Positions 4,378-33,187 of a stretch of DNA of 64,000 nt are shown piece by piece. Within the stretch, counting starts at the first letter, position 1. Every line of letters begins with the position of its first letter. The stretch is taken from the NCBI RefSeq assembly GCF_014217805.1, contig NZ_CP055156.1, forward strand, positions 4,532,585 to 4,596,584, given 5' to 3'. Both the position numbers and the translations under genes were made by a program. Origin of the DNA: Adhaeribacter swui. GTDB taxonomy: Bacteria; Bacteroidota; Bacteroidia; Cytophagales; Hymenobacteraceae. The notes beneath the pieces are model-generated. The model was not told the DNA's origin and made no database searches. It saw only the letters and a program-made list of their open reading frames with translations.

Positions 4378-5613
4378 ATGAAACTAACTTATGCCCGCCG
4401 CTACCGTCGGCCGGTTTCCCGAGCCTGGGATTCGGCCAAAAAAGATCATCAACCAGAGCCTGCTTTTTTTGCGGGTCCTTCTCCGGTAAGTTTTTTTAAG
4501 CCCAATTCATCCATCCAACGTAAGTGCGCCACTTGCGAAGCCGAGGATAAAAAAGTAAGCCGCCAAACCGACTTAAAAGAAGAGAAAAAGCTGCAGAAAA
4601 TGCCCCAGCAGAAAGAAGAAGAAAAGAAATTACAGAAGATGTCCGCAGATCCGGAGGAAAAGAATTTACAAAAACAGGAAAAAAAAGAAGAAAAGCATTT
4701 GGCTACAAAAAGCGATATTCCGGAAGAGAAAAAGATAGATAAAAAAGAAAATAAAAGTAGCCCGGGTGTTCTGGCTCGCACCCATGATTTTGTAAATTCT
4801 TTAACCGGCAAGGGCAACGCTTTGTCTCCGGTAACCTTAAAATTTTTTGCCCACCGCATGGGCTTCGATTTTAGCCCCGTAAGAGTACATACTAATCTCG
4901 AAGCGGAGCAATCGGCGCGCGAGCTGAACGCCAAAGCCTATGCCGTGGATCACCACCTGGTATTTAATCAAGGGCAGTACAATCCTGATTCCGTAGCCGG
5001 AAAAAAACTGCTGGCCCACGAACTAACCCACGTAGTGCAACACAATAAAAATGTAAAACCCATTAGCCAGCCAGATGAAAAAGTTTTAAACCGTGCGGTT
5101 AAAAGCCAAACCGTTACCATTAGCGGCCAAGCCTATCATAACCAAAATAAAGTAGCCTATGGTTGCGAAGGAGTAGCGGTGGAAGGAAAAACCGAAGCCA
5201 ACTATACCGATTCGTATACCTCAACCGGCACAACCACGCCATCCACCAAATGCGAAGATTGCCCCGATGATTGTGTGGCGGCTAAGGGTACGGTTATTTC
5301 GGAGTTTAAAGCTAATCCGGTGGTTACTTTACCCGACGTACCCGAGAATTTAAGCGAATGTGAATCTAAAGCCGTTACCCGTTTTATAAATACTACCCTC
5401 AAAAACCACGAAATGCAGCATGTGGCCGCCTTTAAAACTTACAATGGAAAAATCAATACCCCGTATAAATACCTGGGTTGCGCCAGCGGTTTAGATGCCC
5501 ACATTCAAACCATTCACGAAAATTTAAATACCAAAAGAAGAGAAGCTGCCAATGCCAAAAGCGATAAACTCGATCCCTTTAATCCTACTATACCATGCAA
5601 TTGCGACGCATAA
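4378..5613 (+). CDS. eCIS-core DUF4157 protein with a second C-terminal HExxH zincin motif
   Basis: A 411-residue protein. Residues ~60-130 are a highly charged KEEKKLQK-type repeat linker. Residues ~145-225 form a canonical DUF4157 domain with VRVHTN, the NQGQYNPDSVAG segment and the zinc motif H214-E215-L-T-H218. A separate C-terminal part is cysteine-rich (CEDCPDDC near 300) and carries a second metalloprotease-type motif, H344-E345-M-Q-H348, followed by A-A-F. DUF4157 proteins are established cargo or adaptor proteins of contractile injection systems. The second HExxH suggests a peptidase effector loaded into the particle, which is inference. It lies between the giant DUF4157 gene and the AAA+ ATPase on the same strand. 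The ATG at 4378 fits the MKLTYARRYRRP start; an ATG at 4368 is in another frame. Confidence 0.82.
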   Translation: MKLTYARRYRRPVSRAWDSAKKDHQPEPAFFAGPSPVSFFKPNSSIQRKCATCEAEDKKVSRQTDLKEEKKLQKMPQQKEEEKKLQKMSADPEEKNLQKQEKKEEKHLATKSDIPEEKKIDKKENKSSPGVLARTHDFVNSLTGKGNALSPVTLKFFAHRMGFDFSPVRVHTNLEAEQSARELNAKAYAVDHHLVFNQGQYNPDSVAGKKLLAHELTHVVQHNKNVKPISQPDEKVLNRAVKSQTVTISGQAYHNQNKVAYGCEGVAVEGKTEANYTDSYTSTGTTTPSTKCEDCPDDCVAAKGTVISEFKANPVVTLPDVPENLSECESKAVTRFINTTLKNHEMQHVAAFKTYNGKINTPYKYLGCASGLDAHIQTIHENLNTKRREAANAKSDKLDPFNPTIPCNCDA

Positions 5614-5763: not shown

Positions 5764-7119
5764 ATGTCGACTGCTCTTCCGGAAGAAATTGTTGCCCCGC
5801 CCGTTTTGGAAAATATGCTCTCCGATTTGCGGCAGATTATTATACAGCGGCTGGAATCTTATTTTCAGCAGGATGCGGCTGCTTTTGATAATTGGTTATC
5901 CCGGACTTTTGCGGACCAGTTCGTGAAGCTGCCCTTTGCCCGGCAATTGCCGCAGCTAAAAACCCCGGCAGAATACATGGTGCTGCTGCTGGCCCTGGTG
6001 CCGCACCTGCAACCAAACTTTTTTGAATCTATTATGGTGGAGCATTTACCCGGCGGCGGCGATTTTCCGGAGTTTGGCGGGGTAAAAGGAACAAACCACC
6101 GGGGTATTTTGCCCACCGGCGAAACCGCGCAGTTTATTATTGGTGGCACCGATTTAACGCAACGATTAGCCGTACAAGCTTTATTTGAGGAAGAACATTT
6201 TTTTTACCAGAACGATATTATTTGGCTTGAAACCGTGCGGGAAGGCGAGCCTACCATGAGCGGCCGGATTATTTTGGCTCCCGAGTGGGTAAATACCTTG
6301 TTAAAAGGTACCGATGTAAAACCGAAATTTAGCCCCGATTTTCCGGCAAAGTTGGTGCAAACTAAAATGGACTGGAACGACCTGGTTTTGCACCCGTTTA
6401 CCGCCGAACAAATAGAAGATATTAAACGCTGGTTCCGCTACCACACCGTACTGGAAGCCGATGTAAATTTATCCCGGAAAATCAGACAAGGCTACCGGGT
6501 TTTATTTCACGGGCCACCAGGCACCGGCAAAACCCTCACGGCCGGCCTCATGGGAAAAGAATTTAACAAAGATGTTTACCGCGTCGATTTGTCGCAGATT
6601 GTCTCGAAATACATTGGGGAAACCGAAAAGAACCTGAGCAAAATTTTTGACCGGGCCGAACACAAAGATTGGATTTTGTTTTTCGACGAAGCCGATGCCT
6701 TGTTCGGCAAACGCACGAACGTGCAAAGTTCCCACGATAAATACGCTAACCAGGAAGTGTCGTTTTTGCTGCAAAGGGTCGAAGATTTTGGGGGCTTGTT
6801 AATTTTGGCTTCTAATTACAAAGCCAACATGGACGAAGCTTTTCTGCGCCGGTTCCATTCTATTGTGCATTTCCCGATGCCGAACGCTCAGGAACGATTA
6901 AGGCTCTGGCAACAATCTTTACCACACTCTATAACCACGCACAACCAGCTTAACCTTTCGCAACTTGCCGACGCACACGAACTTAGCGGCGCTTCCATCC
7001 TCAACATCGTGCAATTTGCCGCGCTCAAAGCCCTAAGCCGCCCCGACCAGACTTTGTACCAGGACGATTTACTGCTGGGCATCCGCCGCGAACTCCGGAA
7101 AGAAGATAAGTCCGCCTAA
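5764..7119 (+). CDS. AAA+ ATPase of the contractile injection system (Afp15-like)
   Basis: A 451-residue AAA+ ATPase with a family-specific N-terminal domain (~1-185) and a C-terminal ATPase core. Walker A is GPPGTGKT at 250-257, Walker B is ILFFDEAD with D308-E309. Sensor 1 is the ASN in LILASNYK, and the arginine pair in FLRRFHS is the probable finger. In Afp and PVC clusters an ATPase of this type is required for particle assembly, perhaps by handling cargo or sheath subunits. Here it lies upstream of the sheath, next to the two DUF4157 genes, rather than at the distal end as in Afp. That position favours a link to cargo loading, which is inference. A 650-base gap separates it from the sheath gene. 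Confidence 0.9.
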   Translation: MSTALPEEIVAPPVLENMLSDLRQIIIQRLESYFQQDAAAFDNWLSRTFADQFVKLPFARQLPQLKTPAEYMVLLLALVPHLQPNFFESIMVEHLPGGGDFPEFGGVKGTNHRGILPTGETAQFIIGGTDLTQRLAVQALFEEEHFFYQNDIIWLETVREGEPTMSGRIILAPEWVNTLLKGTDVKPKFSPDFPAKLVQTKMDWNDLVLHPFTAEQIEDIKRWFRYHTVLEADVNLSRKIRQGYRVLFHGPPGTGKTLTAGLMGKEFNKDVYRVDLSQIVSKYIGETEKNLSKIFDRAEHKDWILFFDEADALFGKRTNVQSSHDKYANQEVSFLLQRVEDFGGLLILASNYKANMDEAFLRRFHSIVHFPMPNAQERLRLWQQSLPHSITTHNQLNLSQLADAHELSGASILNIVQFAALKALSRPDQTLYQDDLLLGIRRELRKEDKSA

Positions 7120-7774: not shown

Positions 7775-9370
7775 ATGGCAACTTTAACTTATAAAACCCC
7801 CGGGGTATACATTGAAGAAATAACCACTTTACCGCCCTCGGTGGCCGAGGTAGAAACGGCCATCCCGGCCTTTATCGGCTTTACGGAAACCGGGGTGCGC
7901 AACGATGCCCGGCGAATTGCTTCGCTGGTGGAATACCAGCAATATTTTGGGTACGCTGAGATTGAAAGAAGTATTACGGTTACCGTAGAAAAAAATGCCA
8001 GTAATGCTGCCGAAACCCGGGTACTCAACGTTACCATTGATCCGGCTACTAAATCTAAAAATGTACTTTACTACGCCTTGCAGATGTATTTTGCCAATGG
8101 GGGCGGACCTTGCTACATTGTGTCTACGGGCAATTTTGCCGACAGTGCCGGCAATCCGCGCGAAGCTTACGGCAATGCTTTACTGGCCAGTTCTAAAGAA
8201 GACGAGCCCACCTTGCTGGTTTTTCCGGATGCGCCTTTTATTTTAAACGCCGCCGATTATTACGGTTTAATGAACGATGCCTTAGCCGAATGTTCCCGCC
8301 TCGGCGACCGGTTTGCCATTGTGGATGTATTGAACGTGAACGATGATTCTTTAGCTTCGGTAGCGGCTTTCCGGCAAAACATTACTGCTAATCTATCCGA
8401 AACCAAATACGGGGCGGCCTATTATCCTTACTTAAATACCAGCCTCGATTACCGCTACGAACCCGCCAATGTGCGCGTGTTGCTGGCCGGGGATGATACC
8501 TCTGCACGTGCCCTGGAAGATAGCCGGCAAACGGCCTTAGTAGCCCGGCGTGATGCGGATGCGGCCCGGGCCGAAGTAGACCGGTTAAAGCAAGCCGCCG
8601 ATGCCGGCGATGCGGATGCCAAAAAAGGAATTGGCGATGCCGAAAAAAGAGCGAGAGATTTAGAGTCAGCGGCCAAAGCGGCTCAAACTGTGGCCGATGC
8701 CGCCGGTAAAGCTGTAACGGAACAAACGTTTGAGGCTCAAAATAACGCAGTACAAAACCAAATTAAAAAAATGATTGGGGGTTTAGGCGTGCAATTAACC
8801 CCTTGCGCTGCCGTGGCGGGCGTGTACGCAGCCGTAGATAGCACCCGCGGCGTTTGGAAAGCACCCGCCAATATAAGCTTGAACTACGTTACTTCTACCG
8901 CCGCCCGGATTACCGATGATGACCAACGGGATTTAAACGTGGATGTGGTAGCCGGTAAATCAGTCAACGCCATTCGCTCTTTTGTGGGGATGGGTACCAA
9001 AATCTGGGGCGCACGCACCCTGGCCGGCAACGACAACGAGTGGCGTTACGTGAACGTGCGCCGGTTCTTTAATATGGTAGAAGAATCCATAAAAAAATCG
9101 ACGTACTGGGCTGTGTTTGAACCCAACGATAAAAACACCTGGGTACGCGTACGCGCCATGATCGAGAATTACCTGTACCAAAAATGGGAACAAAGCGCCT
9201 TGGCCGGAGCGAAAGCCGATGATTCGTTTTACGTGCGGGTAGGCTTAGGCGAAACCATGTCGCCGGTTGATATTCTGGAAGGCCGGATGATTATTGAAAT
9301 TGGATTAGCGGCGGTGCGGCCGGCCGAGTTTATTATTATCCGGTTTTCGCATTTTCTCCAGAAATCGTAG
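7775..9370 (+). CDS. eCIS contractile tail sheath protein with coiled-coil insertion
   Basis: A 531-residue phage-type tail sheath protein. The N-terminus TYKTPGVYIEEI and the following PAFIGFTETG are sheath hallmarks. The C-terminal domain (ESIKKSTYWAVFEPND..., then WEQSALAGAKADDSFYVRVG and a final EFIIIRFSH) is the conserved handshake and lock region. It should polymerise around the tube and contract to drive it out. Residues ~240-335 are an Ala/Asp/Arg-rich heptad stretch (DADAARAEVDRLKQAAD) absent from the minimal sheath fold; it may protrude from the particle surface. Afp has three sheath paralogues; only this one is present here. The tube gene follows 28 bases downstream, so sheath and tube are likely co-transcribed. 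Confidence 0.95.
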   Translation: MATLTYKTPGVYIEEITTLPPSVAEVETAIPAFIGFTETGVRNDARRIASLVEYQQYFGYAEIERSITVTVEKNASNAAETRVLNVTIDPATKSKNVLYYALQMYFANGGGPCYIVSTGNFADSAGNPREAYGNALLASSKEDEPTLLVFPDAPFILNAADYYGLMNDALAECSRLGDRFAIVDVLNVNDDSLASVAAFRQNITANLSETKYGAAYYPYLNTSLDYRYEPANVRVLLAGDDTSARALEDSRQTALVARRDADAARAEVDRLKQAADAGDADAKKGIGDAEKRARDLESAAKAAQTVADAAGKAVTEQTFEAQNNAVQNQIKKMIGGLGVQLTPCAAVAGVYAAVDSTRGVWKAPANISLNYVTSTAARITDDDQRDLNVDVVAGKSVNAIRSFVGMGTKIWGARTLAGNDNEWRYVNVRRFFNMVEESIKKSTYWAVFEPNDKNTWVRVRAMIENYLYQKWEQSALAGAKADDSFYVRVGLGETMSPVDILEGRMIIEIGLAAVRPAEFIIIRFSHFLQKS

Positions 9371-9398: not shown

Positions 9399-9830
9399 AT
9401 GGCAGATTATCCATTACCCGTCTTTCACTTTCGAGTAGAATGGGGGGGCACCAAAATCGGATTTTCGGAAGTTTCCGGACTTACCCAGGAAGTGCAGCTC
9501 ATTGAATACCGCGAGGGCAGCAGCCCTGATTACTCCACCATTAAAATGCCGGGCTTGCACAAGTACAACAATATTACCCTGAAGCGCGGCATTGCCAAAG
9601 GCGACAACGAATTTTTTACCTGGCTAAATACCGTGCAGCTAAATACCGTAGAACGCCGGAACTTAACCATAAACCTGTTAAACGAAAACCACGAGCCGGT
9701 TATGAGCTGGAAAGCCCGCAATTGCTGGCCTGTAAAAGTAGAAGGTCCGGGTTTAAAAGCCAACGGTAACGAAGTCGCCATCGAGTCCATTGAAATAGCT
9801 CACGAAGGTCTAACGCTCGAAAATAGCTAG
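9399..9830 (+). CDS. eCIS inner tube protein (Afp1-like, phage tail tube family)
   Basis: A 143-residue protein of the phage tail tube family (T4 gp19 and Afp1/Afp5 type). The start LPVFHFRVEW, the FSEVSGLTQEVQLIEYREG strand pair, the ITLKRGIAKG loop and the closing ESIEIAHEGL are all typical. It should stack as hexameric rings inside the sheath and form the channel that holds cargo. It lies directly after the sheath gene and before a second tube paralogue. The two share the KRG and E-V-x-GL landmarks but little else, so one probably builds most of the tube and the other the base of it. That division is inferred from Afp and PVC structures. Confidence 0.95.
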   Translation: MADYPLPVFHFRVEWGGTKIGFSEVSGLTQEVQLIEYREGSSPDYSTIKMPGLHKYNNITLKRGIAKGDNEFFTWLNTVQLNTVERRNLTINLLNENHEPVMSWKARNCWPVKVEGPGLKANGNEVAIESIEIAHEGLTLENS

Positions 9831-9925
9831 TTAGGTAAATTAAAGTAATAGGTTTATTGGTTTGATGGATATCATTGATATATAATATTATATAATTTTA
9901 AAATTTCAAAAAAATTGTCCGGTTT

Positions 9926-10366
9926 ATGGCCGCCTATTACCCACCCGTTGGCTTTCATTTTAAAGTAGATATCCCCGGTATTGGAGCCGGAGATAAAGAC
10001 ATGCGGTTTCAGGAAGTAACCGGATTGAGCGCCGAAATTGGCGTAGAGGAACTAGCCGTAGGTGGCGAAAACCGGTTTACCTACCGGCTTCCTACCCGAG
10101 CTAAATACGCCAACGTAGTATTAAAACGCGGCATGCTCAAAGACTCCGGATTAATTAAATGGTTCCGGAATGCGATCGAGAACTTTGAATTTGAGCCCGT
10201 GGATTTAAGCGTGCATTTGCTCAACGAGAAACACGAAGTACTTAACTCCTGGGATTTCCGGCAAGCTTATCCCGTTAAATGGGTCATCTCGGATTTCAAG
10301 GCCTTAGAAAACTCCCTGGTAGTAGAAACCATCGAACTAGCCTACCAATTCTTCACGAGGAAGTGA
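9926..10366 (+). CDS. Second eCIS tube protein (Afp5-like, tube initiator candidate)
   Basis: A 146-residue tube paralogue. PVGFHFKVDI, FQEVTGLSAEIGVEEL, VVLKRGMLKDSGL and ETIELAYQFF match the family in order. The order in the cluster (after sheath and main tube, before DUF5908 and LysM protein) matches Afp5, which in structures joins the tube to the baseplate hub. It could instead be an alternative major tube subunit. The start ATG at 9926 gives MAAYYPPVGFHF, the usual length for the family. A 29-bp perfect inverted repeat pair follows the gene. Confidence 0.92.
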   Translation: MAAYYPPVGFHFKVDIPGIGAGDKDMRFQEVTGLSAEIGVEELAVGGENRFTYRLPTRAKYANVVLKRGMLKDSGLIKWFRNAIENFEFEPVDLSVHLLNEKHEVLNSWDFRQAYPVKWVISDFKALENSLVVETIELAYQFFTRK

Positions 10367-14062: not shown

Positions 14063-14482
14063 ATGGACGCATTTTTTCAAAATTTTACGGGTAACGGCTG
14101 GAAATTTCCGGTAGAGTTTGATTCTAATTCCGGTTCAGTTGTGCTGTTATCCGGCGAAGAAGATATTCGCAACAGTTTAGAGGTTTTGTTCTCGACGCGA
14201 GTGGGGGAGCGCCTCATGCATGCCCGCTATGGTTCTTCTTTATCCAGTTTTTTGTTTATGCCCATGCACAAAAGCAACTTAACTTACCTGGAAGCCGTGG
14301 TGCGCGACGAAATCCTGTTTAACGAACCCCGCATTGTTATCACCGATATAGAGTTGCGATTAGCCCCCGATGAAAGTAACCGGCTGGATATTGCCATAGC
14401 ATACAAAATAACTGCCACTAACAACCGGTACAACTATGTCTATCCTTTTTACCTGAAAGAAGCCACCAATTTGGAGTGGTGA
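14063..14482 (+). CDS. gp25-like baseplate wedge protein (Afp9-like)
   Basis: A 139-residue protein of the gpW/gp25 family: GWKFPVEFD, then EEDIRNSLEVLFSTRVGERL and the GSSLSSFLF helix, then EPRIVITDIELRL. In T4, T6SS (TssE) and Afp this protein joins the wedge to the first sheath ring and starts sheath polymerisation; the EDI-x-x-L and R-x-GER motif residues are present. It sits between PAAR and the first giant baseplate protein. The order PAAR then gp25 differs from the gene numbering of Afp, where gp25 precedes PAAR, but both are adjacent as expected. Confidence 0.95.
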   Translation: MDAFFQNFTGNGWKFPVEFDSNSGSVVLLSGEEDIRNSLEVLFSTRVGERLMHARYGSSLSSFLFMPMHKSNLTYLEAVVRDEILFNEPRIVITDIELRLAPDESNRLDIAIAYKITATNNRYNYVYPFYLKEATNLEW

Positions 14483-22100: not shown

Positions 22101-22559
22101 GAGCAAAATGCCGATGGCTACCATTTTTTTCGCTTAGTAGATGTAGACCGGGTGCTGGGCGAAAGCAAAAAACGCTACCGGCAACTAGACGAACTCGAAG
22201 CCGAACTAACCAGCATGGTTACATTTTTCTCGTTTGAGCAGCAAAACCCCGCTAATCAACCCGATGAAGAAAACGCCCTGCTGGCGCAAGCCGACCCATA
22301 TTCTTTTCAAATATCGATAATGCTGCCTGAGTGGCCTGCCCGGTTTCGGAATAAAACTTTTAAGCACTTGCTCGAAAAAACCATTTACATGGAAACGCCG
22401 GCGCATATTTATCCGCAGGTGTTTTGGTTAAACCACAAGCAAATGCGCGAACTGGAAGAAGCGTATAAACTATGGCTGGAAGAGTTGCCCCAAGCCGAAA
22501 TTGCGAACACCGAGGTAGAAAATAATTTGATTTACCAGCTAAATCAACTGCGCAAATAA
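19170..22559 (+). CDS. Second giant baseplate protein, J-type (Afp12-like)
   Basis: A 1129-residue protein. Residues ~38-66 (WTDYNTHDPGITLLEEF, ALTDLGYR) are the signature of the baseplate-J-like family of contractile injection systems. Later parts are mixed alpha/beta, with HVIEHILLRPK near 865 also typical. It probably pairs with the 1452-residue protein in each wedge. It ends one base before the start of the tape-measure-type gene, so the two are coupled. N-terminal MPAPVTIEKENKLPPAEDYH gives the expected family length; no upstream alternative was seen. Confidence 0.88.
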   Translation: MPAPVTIEKENKLPPAEDYHFLRKEGIKLIQDLAGKVWTDYNTHDPGITLLEEFCYALTDLGYRTHFDIKDLITPPELRPETWKESFLTARQALPCHPVTLLDYRKLIIDVAGVRNAWIEISDDAEVPIYLRAADSSGDAQQPLYVLSGETGDLLRLKGLYKVFVEYEPDVIFKKNEEEIAQQIKERLYAHRNLGEDFISVTSIEYEYFKMEAEIQVSEGTDIEKINARIFEVIYNFFSPPVTFYTLDQMIAKGYSAEEIFQGPVLRHGFIESEELEKSEKYKDVHLSDIMRLISGIEGVIAIKKLALPRESQSAFSDFTDWLTDVKDHQRAPRLDTDNSRISFIRSGDRHRNNLEKQPNPERVKALFSFFQSANFRARLQGAGKDLPVPAGEFMDVRDYYPVQKSLPAVYGLAETYLHPPLTASTIKSAAFELLDAQIGLTLRELLSLLLIEKPNDDTLLEQINHLTNLNLTVEEVDAILQQIATDKENAPIITRYLPQLVPAEIAALPIPEQMTALLAQHRRIPVASSRMAREIQQVVNQITNSSLFDLPEEEVQQVRDMYRLRQLQQLEPRQRLALQLRGYLMVFEQILADYLGQLAEIRNLLSFSANLKQTYFPQTLAGLPDYEALFLDYAKFQEQQLRLAETEETYFTRRNQLLNHLLGRFAESLDKYGNFLQTTAGKNTNQKLIQDKIAFLQDYVAVSTYRSQGFNYNNPDATWDSTNVSGLKKRICRLLGMPHYRQKFIASNALSIQEITPDNQVRRYVVVLTNPENKEKVLLRSLEYEFASEAEEILNYILQNGSNTDLYEKEGRRDKWSYHLKRFTHENDYEIIASQTFTYQADAEAAYEQTMGVLTGFATDENFHVIEHILLRPKVDGRERSGKRGSSLNADTVEYLSVNTTSAINNLSTFQNPAPLYKFRIINIKNEGKTNWRLSLTKEDYNEILLINEDFLFYKHLTRRLEQIRQFASDRANFTIEQNADGYHFFRLVDVDRVLGESKKRYRQLDELEAELTSMVTFFSFEQQNPANQPDEENALLAQADPYSFQISIMLPEWPARFRNKTFKHLLEKTIYMETPAHIYPQVFWLNHKQMRELEEAYKLWLEELPQAEIANTEVENNLIYQLNQLRK

Positions 22560-22560
22560 G

Positions 22561-25134
22561 ATGCATGCGGTAGCGATAAATAAAGAAGTATTTGAGTTTA
22601 GTTGCACCCAAGAGCAAAAAGCCAGAATAGTGCAGCAAGAATTTGTGCACTATCTGGCGCCGCAACTCCATGCGCTAATTTTAAAAATTGTTACGGAGCG
22701 CTTTCCCCAAACAAACCTGCAAATTGATTTTCTGGAAATAGATCTGGGCCAAATTGCTCCGTTGGAATTAAGCCAGGCGACCACCTTAATAAAGTTTGAG
22801 CAGGAATTTACGCAGCAACTTATTAATTATAAAAACAACATTTTACTGGCGGGTAAACTGCAGCCGGAGTTTGAGTCACTTTTAATTGATAATTCTGACG
22901 GTTCCCTAAGAAATTTTCAACAAGATGCCTATAATCCGGGAGGGGCTGCGGTTCGGTTAATAAATAAGCTGGCCAGCCAAAAGCTGCAATTTACGCTACA
23001 GCAGGAGTGGCAACTGGTAAAAACTTTTTTAGAAACCGGCGATGTGCCCTGGTGGATAGATAAAAGTCAGTCGTTAAACCTGGATGCTATCATAAACCGG
23101 GTAGCGAAGCAGCAGCCCGGAAAATTTAAAGATTTTTTAAAAAATCAACCGCTACATACTTTTGTTTGGCAGCGGCTCAATGAGAATTGCAAGCCCACTA
23201 CCCGCGAGAAAATCCGGGAGCTAAAGCAAGAATATCTTTTACCGGAAAAAGCTGGTTTCACGTTTAGCCAGGCAAATACTGATTATGCCCCGGTATTTTC
23301 TATGTTTTCTCGGGAACAGAGTATTCGCCTGAAAACTTTATTTCGGCGGCTTTACCGGGAGTCGGAAGCAGAACAAAAGAAGAATCAGGGGTACAAAATT
23401 CTAGAACTGTCCGGTTTAAACTGGGTTCAGCAGGCTGTATTATTTGAATGGCTGCCCGCCGCAGAATTTAAAATAGTGCAAGCTTATTTTGCCACACCAA
23501 CCATTCACCGACGTTTCCCGGAAAAAAGAAAAGTGCAGCAGGCACTGCAATTACTTTCGCCGCTTCAATTAAATTTTTTACTGTTTCCCGGCCTTTTACC
23601 AACTAATCCGTCGGCAGGTAATCCGGCGCTACTTAGTAAACAAACCGAACCCGCTGCGTTTTTTAAAAATTCCCAAAGTGCGCCCCAGAAAATAAGAGGA
23701 TTAAAGGATTTACCAACCAGTTTTTCGGGTAAATCCAATCGCCTGTTCGGGTGGGCCGGCAATAAAAATTTGCCAGACAAACCTGCCCAGGAGAATCCGG
23801 GTGCCAAGCCGTTGAACCTGGAAAATACAAGGTATACTCTGCCGCAATCTACTAAAATAGTAGGGAAGCCGGCTTTAACCATTCCCGCTAAAAAGCTTTC
23901 TTTAGATGACCATTTTACCTCCCCTAATCTTACACTCACTCCCCGGTTCTCTAGTTTAAAACCGGCAAAAGAAAATGTAAAAATTGTAAATCCGGAGCTA
24001 TTAGTTCCTGCGCCCGGAGCAAGTAAAATTTATTCTACAGAAATTCCTGATAAAGCTACCGGGCCAATTTTTAAAAAATTAGCTTTTGCCGATCCGCAAC
24101 TTAAAGCCTGGTGCCACCAGTTAGCCCCCAAAGAATTACGCCAGCTTAAACGCCTTTTTACCCGGCCCCACACTGACCGTCGGGTACTGATTGGCGCTTT
24201 AATGAACCAGCCCGTTGCTAATATATCGGCTTTATTTCAGGTTTTGGCCAATGTATCTGGCATCTGCCAAATTCTTTTTTTTGAAACTGAAAAGCCGCAA
24301 AAGCCGGGGGGAACGCCCGCATTTACGAAACGTGCCGCCGCCAACCAACAAGTAAAACGGATGCAGCAAATACAAGCGCAGGTGCAGGAAATTTTTCAAA
24401 ATTTACATGTACCAGAGCAGGTGGTTTTGCAGGATATTCTGGGAAATGTTCCTGATGACTCTTGGATAGATAAAATGAACTTACGCCGGATTTTGTCACA
24501 ACTGCCCCCGGAAAGCCTTTCTTTTATGCAGGCTTTAACTGAGTTGCCGACCGCAGATTTACAATTACTGGCTACTTTAAACCAGTCACCACCCGAGAAC
24601 ATCTGGCAACAGGAGCAGACTTTGAAATACTACGTCGATAATGCCGGTTTGTGTTTGTTAGCTCCGTACCTGCCCGGATTGTTTACGCATTTAGATTACC
24701 TGGAAAATAAAAAATTTAAAAATGTAAGGGCTGCCACCCGGGCCATGCAGGTGCTGCAGTACCTGGTTACCGGTAAGCGCCAGGCGCCGGAATATAGTTT
24801 GCCTTTAACCAAGGTACTTTGCGGGTATCATTCGGGTATTAGCCCTGCCGGTAAAGTGCGGTTAACCAGCAAAGAATTAGCCGAGGCCGATAGCTTGCTC
24901 CAGGCCGTTATCCAGCATTGGAAAGCTTTGAAAAATACTTCGCCTCTGGGCCTGCAACAAACTTTTTTACAGCGCCCCGGCATACTCACGGAAAATGAAA
25001 AACACTGGACTTTGCAAGTAGAACCGCGCGGCCCCGATTTATTATTAACTACTATTCCGTGGGGTTTTACTTTAATTAAATTACCCTGGATGAGCAAAAT
25101 GCTGCAAGTAGAGTGGGAGGGATCTGCTTATTAG
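22561..25134 (+). CDS. Contractile injection system tape-measure-type protein (Afp14-like)
   Basis: An 857-residue protein. The N-terminus (FEFSCTQEQKARIVQQEF, then LQIDFLEIDLGQI) and the C-terminus (LQQTFLQRPGILTENEKHW, LQVEPRGPDLLLTTIPWGF, LPWMSKMLQVEW) are the two signature ends of this family. Afp14-type proteins set or guide tube length and occupy the lumen. Between the ends lies a Pro/Lys-rich, low-complexity linker (~355-500) that is weakly conserved in such proteins. It starts one base after the previous stop. It is the last clear structural gene; a 169-base gap follows. Confidence 0.88.
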   Translation: MHAVAINKEVFEFSCTQEQKARIVQQEFVHYLAPQLHALILKIVTERFPQTNLQIDFLEIDLGQIAPLELSQATTLIKFEQEFTQQLINYKNNILLAGKLQPEFESLLIDNSDGSLRNFQQDAYNPGGAAVRLINKLASQKLQFTLQQEWQLVKTFLETGDVPWWIDKSQSLNLDAIINRVAKQQPGKFKDFLKNQPLHTFVWQRLNENCKPTTREKIRELKQEYLLPEKAGFTFSQANTDYAPVFSMFSREQSIRLKTLFRRLYRESEAEQKKNQGYKILELSGLNWVQQAVLFEWLPAAEFKIVQAYFATPTIHRRFPEKRKVQQALQLLSPLQLNFLLFPGLLPTNPSAGNPALLSKQTEPAAFFKNSQSAPQKIRGLKDLPTSFSGKSNRLFGWAGNKNLPDKPAQENPGAKPLNLENTRYTLPQSTKIVGKPALTIPAKKLSLDDHFTSPNLTLTPRFSSLKPAKENVKIVNPELLVPAPGASKIYSTEIPDKATGPIFKKLAFADPQLKAWCHQLAPKELRQLKRLFTRPHTDRRVLIGALMNQPVANISALFQVLANVSGICQILFFETEKPQKPGGTPAFTKRAAANQQVKRMQQIQAQVQEIFQNLHVPEQVVLQDILGNVPDDSWIDKMNLRRILSQLPPESLSFMQALTELPTADLQLLATLNQSPPENIWQQEQTLKYYVDNAGLCLLAPYLPGLFTHLDYLENKKFKNVRAATRAMQVLQYLVTGKRQAPEYSLPLTKVLCGYHSGISPAGKVRLTSKELAEADSLLQAVIQHWKALKNTSPLGLQQTFLQRPGILTENEKHWTLQVEPRGPDLLLTTIPWGFTLIKLPWMSKMLQVEWEGSAY

Positions 25135-25280: not shown

Positions 25281-25303
25281 TTTACGCATTTATAATATAG
25301 AGT

Positions 25304-26284
25304 ATGATAAAATCTAAAAAATGGGTTTGCCTTACAAACGAAGCGCACGTTTTTGATGAGCCGGCCGCAGATGGTTTTTGTCCGCTTTGCCCGCCTTACG
25401 AAGGTATCCTGGAAGAAAGAGTAGTTTTTGTGGGGGAAGAAGATAAGCCCAGATTAAGTACCGATGATGCGTACGACCACCCAACCGGATCAACAACGGC
25501 AGGCAAGCCTAAAAACCCGGTGCCGGAAGTAGGGCTGTGCGTGATATTAATGGATGCATCTTCTTCCATGACCGATCAAGCTTTTGCGGTAAGCCCACTT
25601 ACGCGCATGCGCTTAATTGCCACCAGTGCCGCCAGCGGTATTTTCGACCTGGAACGCATGCAAAATAACCCTAATGCTTTTGTGGCCGCTTTTAAGTTCG
25701 ACGACCGCGTAGACCTGATGTTTATGGATACGGTGGCCAATTTGCTGCAGCGCTTTGATAAAGACGTAAAAAAATTTGCAAACTACCTCTACGACGAGCT
25801 GTACATGATGCAGCAAGGTACTGACATTAACCGCGCTTTACAGCAAGCTTACATTTTTGTAGATAAGTTCATGAAAAAGCAATTGCCCGATTTTAAGGTG
25901 CGGGATTATACCCCCATGAAACAAATTATTTTAAAAAGCTCCGGCGATTCTTTATCTATTGCCAATGTGCGGGTATTAATCTACACCGATGGCATGCAAT
26001 ACGATGCTAACAAAAACAAGGTGCTCCAGGATAATCCTTTTAAAGTAAACCCCATTGCGGGCCTGAACCACGACATTGTTATTGGCGCTTTTTTCGGGGA
26101 TGAAAACGATGAAGGTTGCCGGGAACTGCAAAGTTTACTTAGTAATTGTCCCATTCACGATGTGCCCCAGTTTTTCCTATTTAATAATCCGGCCAAAATA
26201 AATATTTTAAAATATTTGTTCCGGATGGCTTCGGGTGCATCCGGCTTTTGCCCCAAGTGCCTCGAAAAACAACTGTACCGGTAA
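25304..26284 (+). CDS. von Willebrand factor A (TerY-like) protein with zinc-finger-like ends
   Basis: A 326-residue cytoplasmic protein. The vWA domain (~75-290) has an intact metal-ion site, D-A-S-S-S in VILMDASSSM, and the later T-D-G-M-Q loop. The N-terminus carries C9, H15, C26 and C29 (CLTNEAH, FCPLC) and the C-terminus ends in FCPKCLEKQLYR; both look like zinc-binding knuckles. TerY-type vWA proteins occur in phospho-signalling triads with a PP2C phosphatase and a kinase, and that is exactly what follows here. It may bind the particle or its cargo and act as a scaffold, which is inference. The next gene starts 16 bases after its stop. Confidence 0.85.
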   Translation: MIKSKKWVCLTNEAHVFDEPAADGFCPLCPPYEGILEERVVFVGEEDKPRLSTDDAYDHPTGSTTAGKPKNPVPEVGLCVILMDASSSMTDQAFAVSPLTRMRLIATSAASGIFDLERMQNNPNAFVAAFKFDDRVDLMFMDTVANLLQRFDKDVKKFANYLYDELYMMQQGTDINRALQQAYIFVDKFMKKQLPDFKVRDYTPMKQIILKSSGDSLSIANVRVLIYTDGMQYDANKNKVLQDNPFKVNPIAGLNHDIVIGAFFGDENDEGCRELQSLLSNCPIHDVPQFFLFNNPAKINILKYLFRMASGASGFCPKCLEKQLYR

Positions 26285-26300
26285 TTTTTTACATCTTGGC

Positions 26301-28028
26301 ATGCACCTGTTAGTAGTAACCACGGTTTTCTGGCTTTTATTTTTGCCGGGTGCCCGAGCAAATCAAGCAAATAACTTTGTCCGGGAGTTAAGTAAAAAAC
26401 ATCCGGATTCCGCATCGGTCCCAGGCAAGAAAAACAATTCGGCCCCGGTAAAAAAACAAAACCAGGATAGCGTTTCGTTACCTAACTCAAACCCCACCCG
26501 GCAAAATTTATTTTTTTTAAAATTAGCAACGCCTTCTGATTTTACTATCCGGTTAGAACCCCTGGAAAATGCTTCGGGTTTGCCAATTACAGATTCGATG
26601 TACGTGTTGCTGCCACGGCTGACGACTAACCAAAAATTACCGGTAGTTTACAAGTTGCGCCTTATTGGCCAAGATAGCGGCATTACCCGAAACCACGACT
26701 ACCGGCTTATAATGCAGGCGAACCACCATTTTGCCAAACCACAATCTGTAACGAGTCAAACTTTATTACAAGCCCGCTGGCAAGCCCAAGCAGCAAAAAA
26801 CATCGCCATTCAGTTTAGCAAAGCAAATTTAACCGCCATTACTCCGGCTGGGGCTAAAGATTCTCAAAATGACTTGGTTGATAAGAAAAGCTTTTCTTGG
26901 CAACCTTATGCTTTTTTGCTGAGCGCTCTGTTGGGCGTATTTGGATTGTTGTGGGTCGCCAGCCGTTTCCTGGTATTTTCGGTAAAACTAAGCCCCGCCA
27001 AAAAGAAATTTTTTAAAAAAAGCAAACCGGACCTACCCGCAAGTGCCCCCACTGAATTGCTGTTACATAATAATGCCACTACACCAACGCCTAAGCCTGC
27101 TGTCCCAAGCCTGCGCAATAACTACCCGGCCGAGCCGCTTTTAAGTACTCCTGACACAGAGTCAAGAGCCCAAATGCCGGATACGCAATTTTACTTTTTC
27201 ACGGAGTTGTTGTTAACGGCGGGGCCTCGAAAAAAATACATGAGCGACCCCGAAGCGGATAAAGATTTAGGCGAAGATGTTTGCGGCTTTGTGGCCCTCC
27301 GCGATCAACTTTTGCTTTGGGTACTCGACGGCACCTCCGACCAATATTGTTTGCGCCACCCTCATAGTAAAAAAGAATATTTCTCGAGCCGCTTGCTGGC
27401 ACAATCCGTAGCAAATAAACTAAGAATTGCTTATGCGCAAGTAGCAACTTTGGCCCTAGATAAATGGCTGAGCCAGGCTGTAGCAGAAGTAAAAGAAGAT
27501 TGGCTGCAAAGCGTGCAAGCGCTGCCCCTGGAAGAACAAGAAATTTTGCGCACCAATATTTTAAACAAGAACATTCCGGAGTGCGCCACCACTATTTTAT
27601 TTGGCACATTAACGCTAACCGGCCACCTGGTGGCTTACCGATCCGGCGATTGCAAAATGGTGCTGTACACCCGGCACCCCCCCAACCAACTGGCCGTGTT
27701 GGAAACTTCTTTGCACCAGAAAAACGAATCCAGCAACGACCGATTGTTTTTTAGGTTGGTACTGGATGCGGCCGGCGGGTTTGAGATTTTACATAATTCG
27801 CCCCGCTTCGAAATTGTGGAGCAAGATCAGGTTTGCGCGCTGGCCGCTTTTTCCGATGGCATTGGCCCAGAAACGGAAACGCATTTGCAAGCGCTTTCGG
27901 GTAAAACTTTAGATACCATCCGGCAAGATTTAATCTATCAGCTACAGGGCACTGACGACGACAAAGTTATTTGCTTTGTAGAAATCCGGGAATGGCCGGA
28001 GATAAACTCTAATAAATCCATTGCTTAG
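26301..28028 (+). CDS. Membrane-anchored PP2C-type phosphatase
   Basis: A 575-residue protein if it starts at ATG 26301, which gives a clean signal-like MHLLVVTTVFWLLFLPGARA; the longer frame from 26235 overlaps the vWA gene and is not needed. Residues ~20-200 are probably periplasmic, a membrane helix lies at ~201-227 (LLSALLGVFGLLWVAS), and a PP2C domain occupies ~300-570. PP2C landmarks are ED in DLGEDVCGF, LDGTSD, SGDCKMVLY, AFSDGIG and DDDKVICFV, so the metal-binding aspartates are retained. It should dephosphorylate Ser/Thr residues in the cytoplasm in response to a periplasmic or membrane signal. Its neighbours are a vWA protein and a kinase-like protein, suggesting a triad. Confidence 0.83.
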   Translation: MHLLVVTTVFWLLFLPGARANQANNFVRELSKKHPDSASVPGKKNNSAPVKKQNQDSVSLPNSNPTRQNLFFLKLATPSDFTIRLEPLENASGLPITDSMYVLLPRLTTNQKLPVVYKLRLIGQDSGITRNHDYRLIMQANHHFAKPQSVTSQTLLQARWQAQAAKNIAIQFSKANLTAITPAGAKDSQNDLVDKKSFSWQPYAFLLSALLGVFGLLWVASRFLVFSVKLSPAKKKFFKKSKPDLPASAPTELLLHNNATTPTPKPAVPSLRNNYPAEPLLSTPDTESRAQMPDTQFYFFTELLLTAGPRKKYMSDPEADKDLGEDVCGFVALRDQLLLWVLDGTSDQYCLRHPHSKKEYFSSRLLAQSVANKLRIAYAQVATLALDKWLSQAVAEVKEDWLQSVQALPLEEQEILRTNILNKNIPECATTILFGTLTLTGHLVAYRSGDCKMVLYTRHPPNQLAVLETSLHQKNESSNDRLFFRLVLDAAGGFEILHNSPRFEIVEQDQVCALAAFSDGIGPETETHLQALSGKTLDTIRQDLIYQLQGTDDDKVICFVEIREWPEINSNKSIA

Positions 28029-28159
28029 TTTCGCGCCCCGGTATTTTTTAAAAATCAGCATTTACAAGCACAAAGAACCTACATCCGCCAGATAGGTAAG
28101 GTTTCCGGTAGCCCTAAAAATAGCCAGGTGTTCCATCCAATAAAATTACTATCCGTGTT

Positions 28160-30682
28160 ATGAAAGTAATTATAAAAGAAAAGGAGTACGATTATTTCTC
28201 CGATTACCCCAATGGCTGGCTGTTTGCCTCCGGCGATCCGTATAAATTTCCGGTAACCATTGGCAAGTATACCTGCTTTGTAAAACGGTTCGAGAAAAAA
28301 AGCCCGGAAGATATATCGGGCTGGGATTTGTTACTGCAGCTAAAAGGCAAGTTCGACCCCAACCTGCCCCGCATTTACGATATTGTAGAAGTAGAAGAAA
28401 ACAACAAGTTTATTCATTATATATTCTACGAGTTTTTAACTGGCGAAACCCTGGAAGCCGCCGTTAACCGCAACGCCGACCTGGATTTACAACGGCTTAC
28501 CCAAGATTTATTTACTGCCGCAGTAGCGTTGCACGCCCGCAACTTTTGGTTTTCGGATTTTTGCGAGAAAAATATTTTTAAGGAAAGCAGTGGCCGGTTC
28601 TTGTTAATTGACCTGGATAGCGTGCAGCCCAATGCCCATCTGCCGCACAACAGCATGTACGGCGACAAGCAATACTGGGCCTTGGTTTTAAATTTTTACA
28701 AAATACAGCTCGGTTACAAAGATTTAAGACCTGCCGACATTAGCGGGCCCATGCTGAATTACTTGCAAATTGTATTTTTAATTTTGCGTTTAAAAATAGC
28801 CCTCTCGGATAAAAGATTCGATTATAAAGCTACGGAGCTCTATGATAATTTGCCAGCTTTACTTGCCGACACCGCCGGAATATTTCCTGAAATATTCCGG
28901 CGGGCATTAACCGAAAAACAGCAAGCCCCGGAATTATTAGAGCCCCACGAAGTACAAGAAAACATTATCCGGCATATTGCCCAAAACAACCAGGTGCCTT
29001 ACCAGCCTACCCAGCGGCTACCCGAAATTTTAAAATTTGCAACTTCCGCTTCGCAAGTAGAGCCCGGCCAATCTTTTACCTTAAGCTGGGAGGTAGCGCA
29101 CGCGCACCAACTGGCCCTGTACCGCAACGGCAATTTATACCAGGAAGTTATCCCCGAAACCTACCAGTTAATAATAAAAGAAAACTACGATGGCCGAACC
29201 CGAAAAGTAGAATTTACCTTACGGGCCACCAGCAAGGCCGGTGAACAAAGCAGTATGCCGGTAACAATTACCATCGCGGAAAAAGTAATTCCTGAACCTG
29301 CCTTGCCCCTGGAGCAAACCGAGCAGCAACAAGAAAACCGCCAATCTTCCCCAATTACGGAGCATGTTCTGGTAGATAACCCGGAGCCACCTATTTTAAA
29401 TCCTTTAAACCCAGACAAGCCGGCAGCACCCATAATCTGGTATTTTCGGTCGGATGCGAAACAGGTAGTAGGAGGGCAGTCGCTTATATTAGAATGGGAA
29501 GTAGAACCGGCTACCCAAATAACGTTATACCGCAACAATCAGGTTTACGCCCGAAATTTAAAAAATCAACAAAGCTTATCTGTTCCGGAGCAATACAATG
29601 CGGCAACTACCATAATAAGTTATCACCTGGTGGCGGCTAATAACCAAGTACAGATTAAAAGCGATGCGCTTGTTGTGCAAGTAATTAAACCCATAAATCC
29701 TAACCCGAGCCGGTTGCGCTACATTCAGCTAGCGGTGTTGGTTTTGTTTTTAGCTATTTTGGGCATTATAGCGGTAGGGGCGTACAGTTTATTTTTCCCC
29801 AAAAACCTCAAAGTGTATGCCGTAGCCAACCACGCTACCGAAGGAGATACATTAGCTATTGCGGGAGAAAATTTTACAAGGGCCGCAGAGAACGTACGCG
29901 TGTTTTTTAATAAACAGCCCGGAACCGTGCTAAGCCTTTCTGCTAAATTGCTGCGTGTTGTCGTGCCCGTTGTCAATACCGGTTCCGATATCACGCCGGT
30001 TACACTGGCTTTATTAATCGATACAGATACCGTGTATACCGCCCGGCAATTTGTTGTAAAGAGAAAGATAACGTTAAACACTCCTCCCATAACTACTCCG
30101 GACTCTACTGTAATACCACCAAAACCAAAGCCAGACAATAACTTAATCAGCCAAACGGAAAATAAGCTGGACACCATTCTTGCGGAAGTGGCGGAACCAG
30201 GCGGCCTTGGCGCTCATTCTTCTAACCCGGGAAATAAACCAGAGAAACTGGATAAACCAGATAAAACCAGTAAACCCGGGCAAACTCCGCCCCATTCTAA
30301 ACCCGATAAACCGGTAACTTTGCCGCCCAAGCCAGCTCCCGAAAAACCACAGCCAACTACGCATTCTTCCTATACTGGTACTTTACCACCCGATATTTAC
30401 AAACTAGTGACAGTTAAAAGCAATGTGGTTATTAATCAAAAACGGGACGGAACTAAAAATTTGCAAATAACCGTCCAGAACAGTTCGGCTTACAACCTCG
30501 ATAATGTGCGGGTAGAAATAGAATACCTGCGTAGAAATGATAAATTTTTAAAAAAAGAAATTTTAACCTTTGTGCGGGTGCGCGCGCATTCAAGCCAAAC
30601 CTTAGCCGCTCCCGATAACGAAAAAGCCAAGAAAGCAAATTTTAAAATTGTTGCCATAAACGGGCAAGCCACTGCTTATTAA
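28160..30682 (+). CDS. Membrane-anchored protein kinase-like receptor with Ig-like and IPT-like domains
   Basis: An 840-residue protein. Residues ~1-235 are a divergent protein-kinase-like fold: FVKRF holds the candidate Lys, the catalytic loop reads FSDFCEKNIF (Asp and Asn kept, His changed), and the DFG position reads LIDLDS. Two Ig-like beta domains (~290-370 and ~425-505) share the SASQVEPGQSFTLSWEV and VVGGQSLILEWEVEP pattern. A membrane helix is at ~517-543, followed by an IPT/TIG-like domain, a Pro/Lys-rich linker (~640-740) and a C-terminal beta domain, all outside the cytoplasm. No glycine-rich loop is evident, so activity is uncertain. It completes a vWA-PP2C-kinase set downstream of the eCIS genes. 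Confidence 0.75.
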   Translation: MKVIIKEKEYDYFSDYPNGWLFASGDPYKFPVTIGKYTCFVKRFEKKSPEDISGWDLLLQLKGKFDPNLPRIYDIVEVEENNKFIHYIFYEFLTGETLEAAVNRNADLDLQRLTQDLFTAAVALHARNFWFSDFCEKNIFKESSGRFLLIDLDSVQPNAHLPHNSMYGDKQYWALVLNFYKIQLGYKDLRPADISGPMLNYLQIVFLILRLKIALSDKRFDYKATELYDNLPALLADTAGIFPEIFRRALTEKQQAPELLEPHEVQENIIRHIAQNNQVPYQPTQRLPEILKFATSASQVEPGQSFTLSWEVAHAHQLALYRNGNLYQEVIPETYQLIIKENYDGRTRKVEFTLRATSKAGEQSSMPVTITIAEKVIPEPALPLEQTEQQQENRQSSPITEHVLVDNPEPPILNPLNPDKPAAPIIWYFRSDAKQVVGGQSLILEWEVEPATQITLYRNNQVYARNLKNQQSLSVPEQYNAATTIISYHLVAANNQVQIKSDALVVQVIKPINPNPSRLRYIQLAVLVLFLAILGIIAVGAYSLFFPKNLKVYAVANHATEGDTLAIAGENFTRAAENVRVFFNKQPGTVLSLSAKLLRVVVPVVNTGSDITPVTLALLIDTDTVYTARQFVVKRKITLNTPPITTPDSTVIPPKPKPDNNLISQTENKLDTILAEVAEPGGLGAHSSNPGNKPEKLDKPDKTSKPGQTPPHSKPDKPVTLPPKPAPEKPQPTTHSSYTGTLPPDIYKLVTVKSNVVINQKRDGTKNLQITVQNSSAYNLDNVRVEIEYLRRNDKFLKKEILTFVRVRAHSSQTLAAPDNEKAKKANFKIVAINGQATAY

Positions 30683-30890: not shown

Positions 30891-30957
30891 TTAAACAAAG
30901 TTGGGCGAAAATTCTACCGGCACAATAGCGGTAGAATTTTCGCCCAACTTTGTTTAA
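30891..30957. repeat. 29-bp perfect inverted repeat with 9-base loop
   Basis: Arms 30891-30919 (TTAAACAAAGTTGGGCGAAA...) and 30929-30957 are exact reverse complements around the loop GCACAATAG. The stem is much longer than a typical intrinsic terminator and is flanked by A and T runs on both sides, so it can work as a bidirectional terminator. It may instead be a solo mobile hairpin element. Confidence 0.85.
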
Positions 30958-31912: not shown

Positions 31913-33187
31913 ATGAAAACTAAACTACTATTCTCCATTTCTTTACTTTCATTGTTTACCGTTGCCTGCGAAACAGAAGAAATAGTTGAGCCTAAAGAGG
32001 TTGCTCGGCTAACGTCGGGTATCGAAGATCTTTCGTATATAACCTCGGCAGATAAAAACCGGCGAAACCTGGTAGCGGAAGAAAGAATTGAACCTAGTTT
32101 AAGTGGAGCCTTTGGGCGCCAGATTTACACTTCGTATGGCTTCGGGGCAACTACCTCGGTATCCCGGAGCGGTTCGCGTTCTGCCCGGCTCGAATTAAGA
32201 AAAGAAGGTAGCGCCGTTAGATCAGAAATAATTTTTAACAAACCCACTCCCTCGCACGGCTGGTACGGCATGAGCCTTTACATGCCTAGCGGTAACTGGC
32301 AAACCGAGAAAGATGGCGATGGCTGGGACATTATTACACAGTTTCATGGCACCCCCGACAGTGGTGATGGTTCCCGGGTACCCCCCATCTCTATGTCAGT
32401 AATCCAGGGTAGACTTGTTTTAACCGTTAATTATTCATCCAAACGATACAACAAAAATCCTGATGGCCGGAAAAGATTTGATTTAGGTCCGGTTGTAAAA
32501 GATAAATGGGTAGATTTTGTGTATCATATTAAATATTCCTACAAGTCTGATGGCAAGCTGGAATTATGGAAAAACGGTAGCAAAGTAGTAAGCTACACCG
32601 GACCAAATACCTACAACGATGCGGTGACTCCCTACTTGAAAATGGGTGTTTATAAAAGAAACTGGGACTATGTATCGAAACGCGTTATTTACGTAGATGA
32701 TGTTCGGATTGGTGATGGTAATTCCTCATACGCCGACGTAGCCCCATCTGGTTCAGGAAGCAGCCAACCCGTAGATCAGCCAACATCTCCTTCGCCAAGT
32801 CCAACTCCAACTGATAACACGTCAGGAACCAGTGGCCAGCAGGTAGTAAGCTTTACCTTAATCAACGCCGACACTGACCGCGACATAAAAACCATCTCCA
32901 ACGGCGAAACTTTAGATTTATCTAATTTACCAACCCGCAACCTGAACATCCGGGCGAATACCAATACAACCGTTGGCAGCGTATACTTTGCACTTTCCGG
33001 GGCTAAGAGTTTTACTAAAGTAGAGGGAGGCGCTCCTTATGCTTTGTTCGGTGATACTAACTTAAATTATGCCGCCTGGCGACCAGCCGTAGGTAGCTAC
33101 ACCTTAAAGGCTACGCCGTATTCTGGTACAAATAAAAGTGGATCCGCAGGCACTTCTTTAACTGTTAGCTTTAAGGTGCAGGAATAA
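31913..33187 (+). CDS. Secreted polysaccharide lyase lipoprotein (heparin-lyase-like fold)
   Basis: A 424-residue lipoprotein with lipobox FTVAC (Cys19). Residues ~55-270 form a jelly-roll lyase domain of the PF14099 type: SARLELRKE, GWYGMSLYMPSGNW, GWDIITQFHG and the closing VIYVDDVRIGDG. It should cleave an acidic polysaccharide outside the cell; the substrate cannot be read from sequence. A Pro/Ser-rich linker (~280-305) leads to a C-terminal beta domain (~310-424) with NIRANT and APYALFGD motifs, a module that recurs in secreted Cytophagales proteins. A strong terminator follows at 33251. The gene is monocistronic and preceded by a long AT-rich gap. Confidence 0.85.
   Translation: MKTKLLFSISLLSLFTVACETEEIVEPKEVARLTSGIEDLSYITSADKNRRNLVAEERIEPSLSGAFGRQIYTSYGFGATTSVSRSGSRSARLELRKEGSAVRSEIIFNKPTPSHGWYGMSLYMPSGNWQTEKDGDGWDIITQFHGTPDSGDGSRVPPISMSVIQGRLVLTVNYSSKRYNKNPDGRKRFDLGPVVKDKWVDFVYHIKYSYKSDGKLELWKNGSKVVSYTGPNTYNDAVTPYLKMGVYKRNWDYVSKRVIYVDDVRIGDGNSSYADVAPSGSGSSQPVDQPTSPSPSPTPTDNTSGTSGQQVVSFTLINADTDRDIKTISNGETLDLSNLPTRNLNIRANTNTTVGSVYFALSGAKSFTKVEGGAPYALFGDTNLNYAAWRPAVGSYTLKATPYSGTNKSGSAGTSLTVSFKVQE

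What the first reader, a model, noticed from the sequence alone, without database searches (positions are those of the whole stretch)
25304..30682. eCIS locus extended by a vWA-PP2C-kinase triad resembling TerY-P
Directly after the tape-measure gene come a TerY-like vWA protein with zinc-knuckle ends, a membrane PP2C phosphatase and a membrane kinase-like receptor with Ig/IPT domains. Two of the three have a membrane helix and extracytoplasmic domains. The same strand, order and spacing suggest they belong to the injection system. Phospho-control is known for T6SS (PpkA/PppA/Fha) but would be novel here. A membrane-tethered control of an eCIS would also bear on whether particles are released or held at the envelope.
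Basis: partly seen in the sequence, partly recalled or inferred. Interest (0 to 1): 0.82.

Follow-up and report, generated by a model that had tools for sequence, protein, structure and literature searches.

The report
Kinase-phosphatase switch beside an injection machine
Right after the genes for a phage-tail-like injection machine, this bacterium carries genes for a kinase, a phosphatase and an adaptor that may let it sense its envelope and control the machine, and bacteria of another order carry the same set beside the same type of machine.

Summary
Directly 3' of the eCIS tape-measure gene lie a vWA protein with zinc-type ends (25304-26284), a membrane PP2C (likely start 26301) and a membrane kinase (28160-30682). 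Motifs, and predicted folds for vWA and kinase, fit. Profile scans show that eCIS-linked vWAs form one clade (99/100) and their eCIS one tape-measure clade (99/99): four genomes of the window's genus (one locus decayed) and three genomes of a Chitinophagaceae group. More distant copies are not tied to eCIS: of 21 loci found outside the genus, 3 are eCIS-linked, 5 (Nitrospinota) have T6SS genes nearby, 11 have neither, some in defence-like settings, and 2 are untestable. So the triad is a wider, portable module, apparently recruited once into one eCIS subtype and separately into T6SS clusters. It is TerY-P-like but lacks the kinase zinc ribbon, and differs from the T6SS threonine-phosphorylation pathway (no FHA domain found in the genome). 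That it controls the eCIS is inferred, not shown.

The parts
25304..26284 (+). vWA protein, 326 aa, no TM found; MIDAS D84, S86, S88, T173, D229; N-terminal zinc-type ligands (C9,H15,C26,C29) and C-terminal ones (C282,H285,C316,C319)
26301..28028 (+). membrane PP2C: signal peptide, outward domain (about 26361-26918), TM (about 26919-26990), cytoplasmic PP2C domain (about 27186-28004); ORF open from GTG 26235
   Evidence: Pfam PP2C_2; E347-D348-x2-G351, D365-G366, G471-D472, D541-G542, D575-D576-K577 invariant in the 16 rows; TM scan; start codon and borders
28160..30682 (+). receptor-like kinase: kinase domain 28160-28984, Ig-like 29021-29278 and 29429-29689 (cytoplasmic side), TM 29705-29794, TIG 29807-30061 and C-terminal beta domain 30407-30577 (outside)
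22561..25134 (+). eCIS tape-measure protein, directly 5' of the triad
   Evidence: CIS_TMP 1.7e-91
4378..5613 (+). eCIS_core (DUF4157) protein
   Evidence: PF13699 1.5e-26
5764..7119 (+). eCIS AAA ATPase
   Evidence: PF00004 1.3e-27
7775..9370 (+). sheath; nearest solved relative AlgoCIS sheath
   Evidence: PF17482 7.4e-14; 7adz E 1.6e-139
9399..10366 (+). two inner-tube proteins (9399-9830, 9926-10366)
   Evidence: PF06841
10882..13357 (+). CIS_tube protein (10882-11598) and spike (11582-13357)
   Evidence: PF19266; PF04717/PF05954
14063..22559 (+). gp25-like wedge (14063-14482) and two large proteins (14674-19032, 19170-22559) taken as baseplate by position
   Evidence: PF04965 for the first; no Pfam hit for the two large ones; their order is kept in G003, G009, L060-L062
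30891..30957 (.). 29-bp perfect hairpin, 9-nt loop, 208 bp after the kinase stop; candidate 3' end of the unit
   Evidence: -46.7 kcal/mol, z -13.4; no such hairpin within 700 bp after the kinase in five other loci

Best explanation
The three genes encode a membrane-linked phospho-switch that has become a fixed accessory of one eCIS subtype. The kinase senses outside the cytoplasmic membrane through its TIG and C-terminal domains and signals through one TM helix to a cytoplasmic kinase domain. The PP2C, with its own extracytoplasmic domain, reverses the phosphorylation on the same side. The soluble vWA protein, with a complete MIDAS and two zinc-type sites, is the adaptor between the enzymes and a cytoplasmic target. 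The target is most likely an eCIS component or its assembly, so that assembly, membrane docking or firing waits for an envelope or contact signal. Shown: gene order, domains, catalytic motifs, predicted folds of vWA and kinase, conserved linkage, matching trees. Inferred: topology, catalytic activity, zinc binding, co-transcription, target and purpose.
For: Same order and strand (baseplate-TMP-vWA-PP2C-kinase) in the genus (3 intact, 1 decayed) and in Segetibacter, Pinibacter and MAG E01. eCIS-linked vWAs are one clade, fork 99/100, in a tree of 24 rows; triad-bearing eCIS are one clade, 99/99, 7 of 30 TMPs. Distances of PP2C and kinase domains track the baseplate protein bp2 over six loci, r 0.94 and 0.92 (1 and 4 of 720 permutations as high); vWA 0.77 (16 of 720). 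Of 8 genus genomes, vWA is in 4 (3 with the whole eCIS, G024 with a remnant) and absent from 4 (G014 has another eCIS; G019, G029, G034 have no sheath match, G034 being 78% complete). In G024 no sheath is found, only bp2 residues 762-1129 remain, and PP2C and kinase are broken while vWA is intact. TIG and C-terminal profiles built from three genus kinases hit, at E 0.01 or better, only eCIS-linked kinases. Catalytic residues are kept. Precedents: T6SS kinase/phosphatase control (listings; PMC3224232 passage) and a membrane protein needed for CIS firing in Streptomyces (PMC12237407 title and passages).
Against: No activity, substrate or transcript was measured. Most vWA relatives found lie without eCIS. 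No FHA phospho-reader found in the genome. The TMP-vWA gap is 137-470 bp in six loci; no hairpin was found in it, but the window's gap holds one weak promoter-like match (25281-25308; the region's total is near chance), so co-transcription is open. PP2C has no TM in Segetibacter as called. One of two Segetibacter kinases has lost the catalytic motif. The outward C-terminal domain was not found in MAG E01 or in Segetibacter's first kinase, and the outward PP2C domain not outside the genus. [quoted passage not shown]
Confidence: 0.6

Rival explanations
1. The triad is a stand-alone defence or stress module that merely sits in the eCIS locus and does not act on it.
For: Relatives lie in defence-like settings: MTES_1575/DUF4011 helicase (PADLOC PDC-S37) with HsdM- and HsdS-like ORFs beside L066, GmrSD beside L064, HsdM near L078, an integrase beside L063 (the Hsd names for L066 are by eye). 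The window kinase has five weak PADLOC hits, all PD-T4-6 (E 0.0012-0.0095). TerY-P-like modules are cited as antiphage systems (PMC11090510 passage). 11 of 21 outside loci show no eCIS or T6SS match in the stored flanks.
Against: Every eCIS-linked copy found lies at the same place, in one clade that matches the eCIS tree; kinases of this clade share outward-facing domains; genus genomes without this eCIS lack the vWA; no PADLOC hit for the window vWA or PP2C.
Confidence: 0.2
2. The triad controls release (host lysis) or expression of the locus rather than an eCIS subunit.
For: eCIS particles are described as released by lysis (PMC8213781 figure legend); outward-facing receptor domains suit a stress sensor.
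Against: No lysis-type Pfam domain among the locus ORFs scanned (lysis genes elsewhere in the genome were not sought); no DNA-binding domain hit in the triad.
Confidence: 0.13
3. The proteins are injected effectors; a survey listed vWA domains near eCIS among putative toxins.
For: PMC8213781 names VWA (PF00092) among eCIS-associated toxin domains (passage); position at the 3' end of the cluster.
Against: Homologous triads exist without eCIS and in T6SS clusters; kinase and PP2C have predicted TM helices; effector-type ORFs lie upstream (eCIS_core; RNase A-type C terminus).
Confidence: 0.05

Closest known systems
TerY-P triad (vWA + PP2C + Ser/Thr kinase with C-terminal zinc ribbon)
   Same: Three protein classes, adjacent, same strand; vWA with complete MIDAS; found beside varied systems
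   Different: Kinase has no zinc ribbon but Ig-like, TM, TIG and C-terminal domains; zinc-type sites are in the vWA; PP2C is membrane-anchored; linked to an eCIS
T6SS threonine-phosphorylation pathway (PpkA/PppA/Fha)
   Same: Membrane kinase with outward part plus PP2C beside a contractile injection system
   Different: vWA is a separate protein without TM, not the kinase's outward sensor; no FHA domain found in the genome
AlgoCIS (clade Ib eCIS)
   Same: Nearest solved sheath relative; DUF4157 proteins in the cluster
   Different: The words kinase, phosphatase and von Willebrand do not occur in the paper's main text
CisA of Streptomyces CIS
   Same: Membrane protein tied to a cytoplasmic CIS and needed for firing (title and passages)
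   Different: 'kinase' and 'phosphoryl' do not occur in that paper; its sequence was not compared
Archaeal ArnA/ArnB
   Different: Fold-level match only; other vWA domains score as well

Membership tests
eCIS | sheath, tube, spike, gp25-like wedge, tape measure, AAA ATPase, DUF4157 in one cluster | tested here: met
TerY-P triad | vWA with MIDAS, adjacent to PP2C and kinase | tested here: met
TerY-P triad | vWA is TerY-like by sequence | tested here: inconclusive
   Pfam VWA_2 only, no NCBIfam model at 0.01, no tblastn match at 1e-5 in 72,556 plasmids (that ter plasmids carry terY is recalled)
TerY-P triad | kinase fused at its C terminus to a zinc ribbon | tested here: not met
   two Cys in 840 aa, no CxxC; definition from PMC11090510 passage
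T6SS threonine-phosphorylation pathway | PP2C phosphatase beside the kinase | tested here: met
T6SS threonine-phosphorylation pathway | kinase with an outward vWA sensor domain | tested here: not met
   outward part has a TIG hit and a beta domain, no VWA hit; PpkA layout from PMC3224232 passage
T6SS threonine-phosphorylation pathway | FHA phospho-reader | tested here: not met
   no PF00498 match at E 0.001 in the own genome; control rings in 6 of 14
Active eukaryotic-type kinase | ATP lysine, catalytic Asp and Asn, metal Asp | tested here: met
   K42, D133, N138, D151 invariant in the 12 rows (Segetibacter's second kinase not among them); DxxxxN in 18 of 19 triad kinases; fold
Active eukaryotic-type kinase | measured ATP binding and phosphotransfer | not testable with these tools
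   needs biochemistry

The most novel reading that the evidence does not exclude
A vWA-PP2C-kinase cassette is a portable firing control that contractile injection systems of two branches (eCIS in Bacteroidota, T6SS in Nitrospinota) captured separately; in this eCIS subtype it ties a cytoplasmic particle to an envelope sensor, so that it docks at the membrane and fires from a living cell on a signal rather than only after lysis.
Probability: 0.27. Interest if true: 0.88.

Novelty: new variant of a known kind. Interest (0 to 1): 0.66.

Why it matters
How eCIS are held, released or fired is open, and the words kinase and phosphatase do not occur in four CIS papers checked; no held paper has both 'contractile injection' and 'PP2C'. 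A defined eCIS clade with its own conserved phospho-switch makes control testable by single gene deletions. The same module in T6SS clusters of another phylum suggests that phospho-control of contractile injectors arose more than once from one portable cassette. It also argues against reading every vWA gene beside an eCIS as a toxin.

Tried and rejected
Idea that vWA is well conserved because it docks on the sheath: rejected, since vWA is the best-conserved triad member in 12 of 12 pairs compared, also without eCIS (L063/L064 92%, L067/L068 86%) and with T6SS (L077/L079 77%).

The hairpin after the kinase as a general operon end: real in the window but absent in five other loci; promoter- and terminator-like counts near chance.

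A single-sequence scan of genome contigs found no relative; the profile scan found 21, but it rests on two peptide patterns, and records near the window's own genome may be left out, so its counts are lower bounds. Viral contigs, plasmids and phages: none. vWA in genome samples: family 4 of 150, phylum 1 of 395, the own genome, family of Segetibacter 4 of 244, order 4 of 390. PP2C profile over the order: 4 of 241.

T6SS linkage is strong in L077 and L079 but rests on one core gene, TssK, in L072, L075 and L076. eCIS and T6SS were sought in flanks by BLAST with the window's and L079's proteins, so remote forms could be missed.

Folds of the Ig-like, TIG and C-terminal domains were not searched alone; kinase matches filled the second look. 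PP2C structure was not predicted. ArnB as closest vWA: many vWA domains tie with it.

Full report
What is there. The window lies in a 6.2-Mb genome of 3 contigs rated 100% complete. An eCIS runs from 4378 to 25134 on the + strand: eCIS_core, AAA ATPase, sheath, two tubes, CIS_tube, spike, gp25, two large ORFs without Pfam hits taken as baseplate, tape measure. The sheath is nearest to AlgoCIS and then to the Anabaena thylakoid CIS. One gene in the genome matches CIS_TMP and one matches this vWA. Upstream are a second eCIS_core protein (window 1-4242) and, before the window, a protein with a bacterial RNase A-type C terminus.

Linkage in the genus. Of the 8 genus genomes held, 4 have vWA: G000, G003 and G009 with the whole cluster in the same order; G024 with TMP, intact vWA, broken PP2C and kinase, bp2 residues 762-1129 only, and no sheath match in the genome. 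The other four lack vWA: G014 has a different eCIS (sheath 61% identical over 326-529); G019, G029 and G034 (78% complete) have no sheath match and no CIS_TMP. In the family sample 24 of 150 genomes have CIS_TMP and 4 of 150 have vWA, all four among the 24; the four are one genus, so this is no probability. The frame breaks in G024 could be sequencing errors; the loss of the sheath is less likely to be.

Linkage beyond the genus. The profile scan of genome contigs gave 21 loci. In the stored flanks: 3 have baseplate-TMP-triad (L060 Segetibacter, L061 Pinibacter, L062 MAG E01, labelled Williamsia but returned in the genome family of Segetibacter). 5 Nitrospinota loci have T6SS genes: L077 and L079 have TssK, TssL, TssM, TssA, TssB and TssC around the triad; L072 and L075 have TssK directly upstream; L076 has TssK about 5 kb upstream (Pfam for L079 and for TssK of L075; the rest by BLAST to L079). 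In L072 and L075 only vWA matched, not PP2C or kinase. 11 have neither (L063-L071, L074, L078), all with the triad complete. L073 (4.7-kb contig) and L080 (partial) cannot be judged. Of 20 of these genomes searched (L065 not held), 6 have CIS_TMP: the three linked ones, and G748, G750 and G755, where it is not in the triad's flanks.

Co-inheritance. In the vWA tree (24 rows; L080 left out) the 7 eCIS-linked rows are one clade (fork 99/100); the 5 T6SS-linked rows and L073 are another (100/100); the root is at the midpoint, for drawing only. In the TMP tree (30 rows, C-terminal 330 residues; G755 not included) the 7 triad-bearing eCIS are one clade (99/99), split into the genus and the Chitinophagaceae group. 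Distances agree over six loci. Profiles from three genus kinases, searched over all ORFs of 24 loci (two held twice), hit at E 0.01 or better only eCIS-linked kinases: TIG in both Segetibacter kinases (7.5e-31 and 0.008), Pinibacter (1.1e-8) and MAG E01 (0.0015); the C-terminal domain in Segetibacter's second kinase and Pinibacter (about 7e-13), not in the others; the outward part of PP2C in none outside the genus.

Mechanism. The best reading is an envelope-sensing kinase/phosphatase pair acting through the vWA adaptor on the eCIS. The T6SS pathway shows that such control exists for a related machine; here no FHA reader was found in the genome, so the output would run without FHA, perhaps through vWA itself. 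In Segetibacter an active-looking kinase stands beside one that lost the catalytic motif and carries the outward domain, which looks like a receptor pseudokinase.

Known or new. TerY-P triads and their link to restriction and defence are known (PMC11090510, passages). A survey of eCIS treats vWA as a putative toxin domain and names GerE and histidine kinases as regulators (PMC8213781, passages). Term counts in the AlgoCIS, thylakoid CIS, hot-spring CIS and metagenome CIS papers show no kinase, phosphatase or von Willebrand. Library searches that join CIS or T6SS terms with TerY, PpkA, PP2C, forkhead or von Willebrand gave no listing that names such a triad at an eCIS (one search listed 20 of 33). 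The library lacks most subscription papers, so this is not proof of novelty.

Noticed in passing
L079 2752-20868; L077; L076 4833-9895: These Nitrospinota loci hold a second vWA and a second kinase (with C-terminal CxxC motifs in L079) beside the triad, and in L076 a second PP2C, so some T6SS clusters may carry two phospho-triads.
   Followed up: partly
L036 3-2489 (ends just before the window's start): 829-aa ORF with a bacterial RNase A-type C-terminal domain, next to two eCIS_core proteins: candidate eCIS cargo.
   Followed up: no
window 31913-33187; L039, L041, L042: A polysaccharide lyase gene follows the triad in all four genus loci, split in G003 and with further copies in G009 and G024. 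A TTTG/TANNTTTG promoter match lies before it (31637), but such matches are at chance level.
   Followed up: no
window 30891-30957: 29-bp perfect inverted repeat with 9-nt loop, not seen after the kinase in five other loci: terminator or small mobile element.
   Followed up: partly
window 42134-43450: Group II intron-type reverse transcriptase/maturase ORF.
   Followed up: no
window 49987-51276: Serpin (E 4.1e-117); recalled as uncommon in bacteria.
   Followed up: no
L060 16685-20206: Second Segetibacter kinase-like protein has lost the catalytic DxxxxN motif but keeps TIG repeats and the C-terminal domain: a probable receptor pseudokinase.
   Followed up: partly
L060 and L061 vWA: An extra segment, Ig-like by eye, lies between the N-terminal zinc-type part and the vWA domain.
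   Followed up: no
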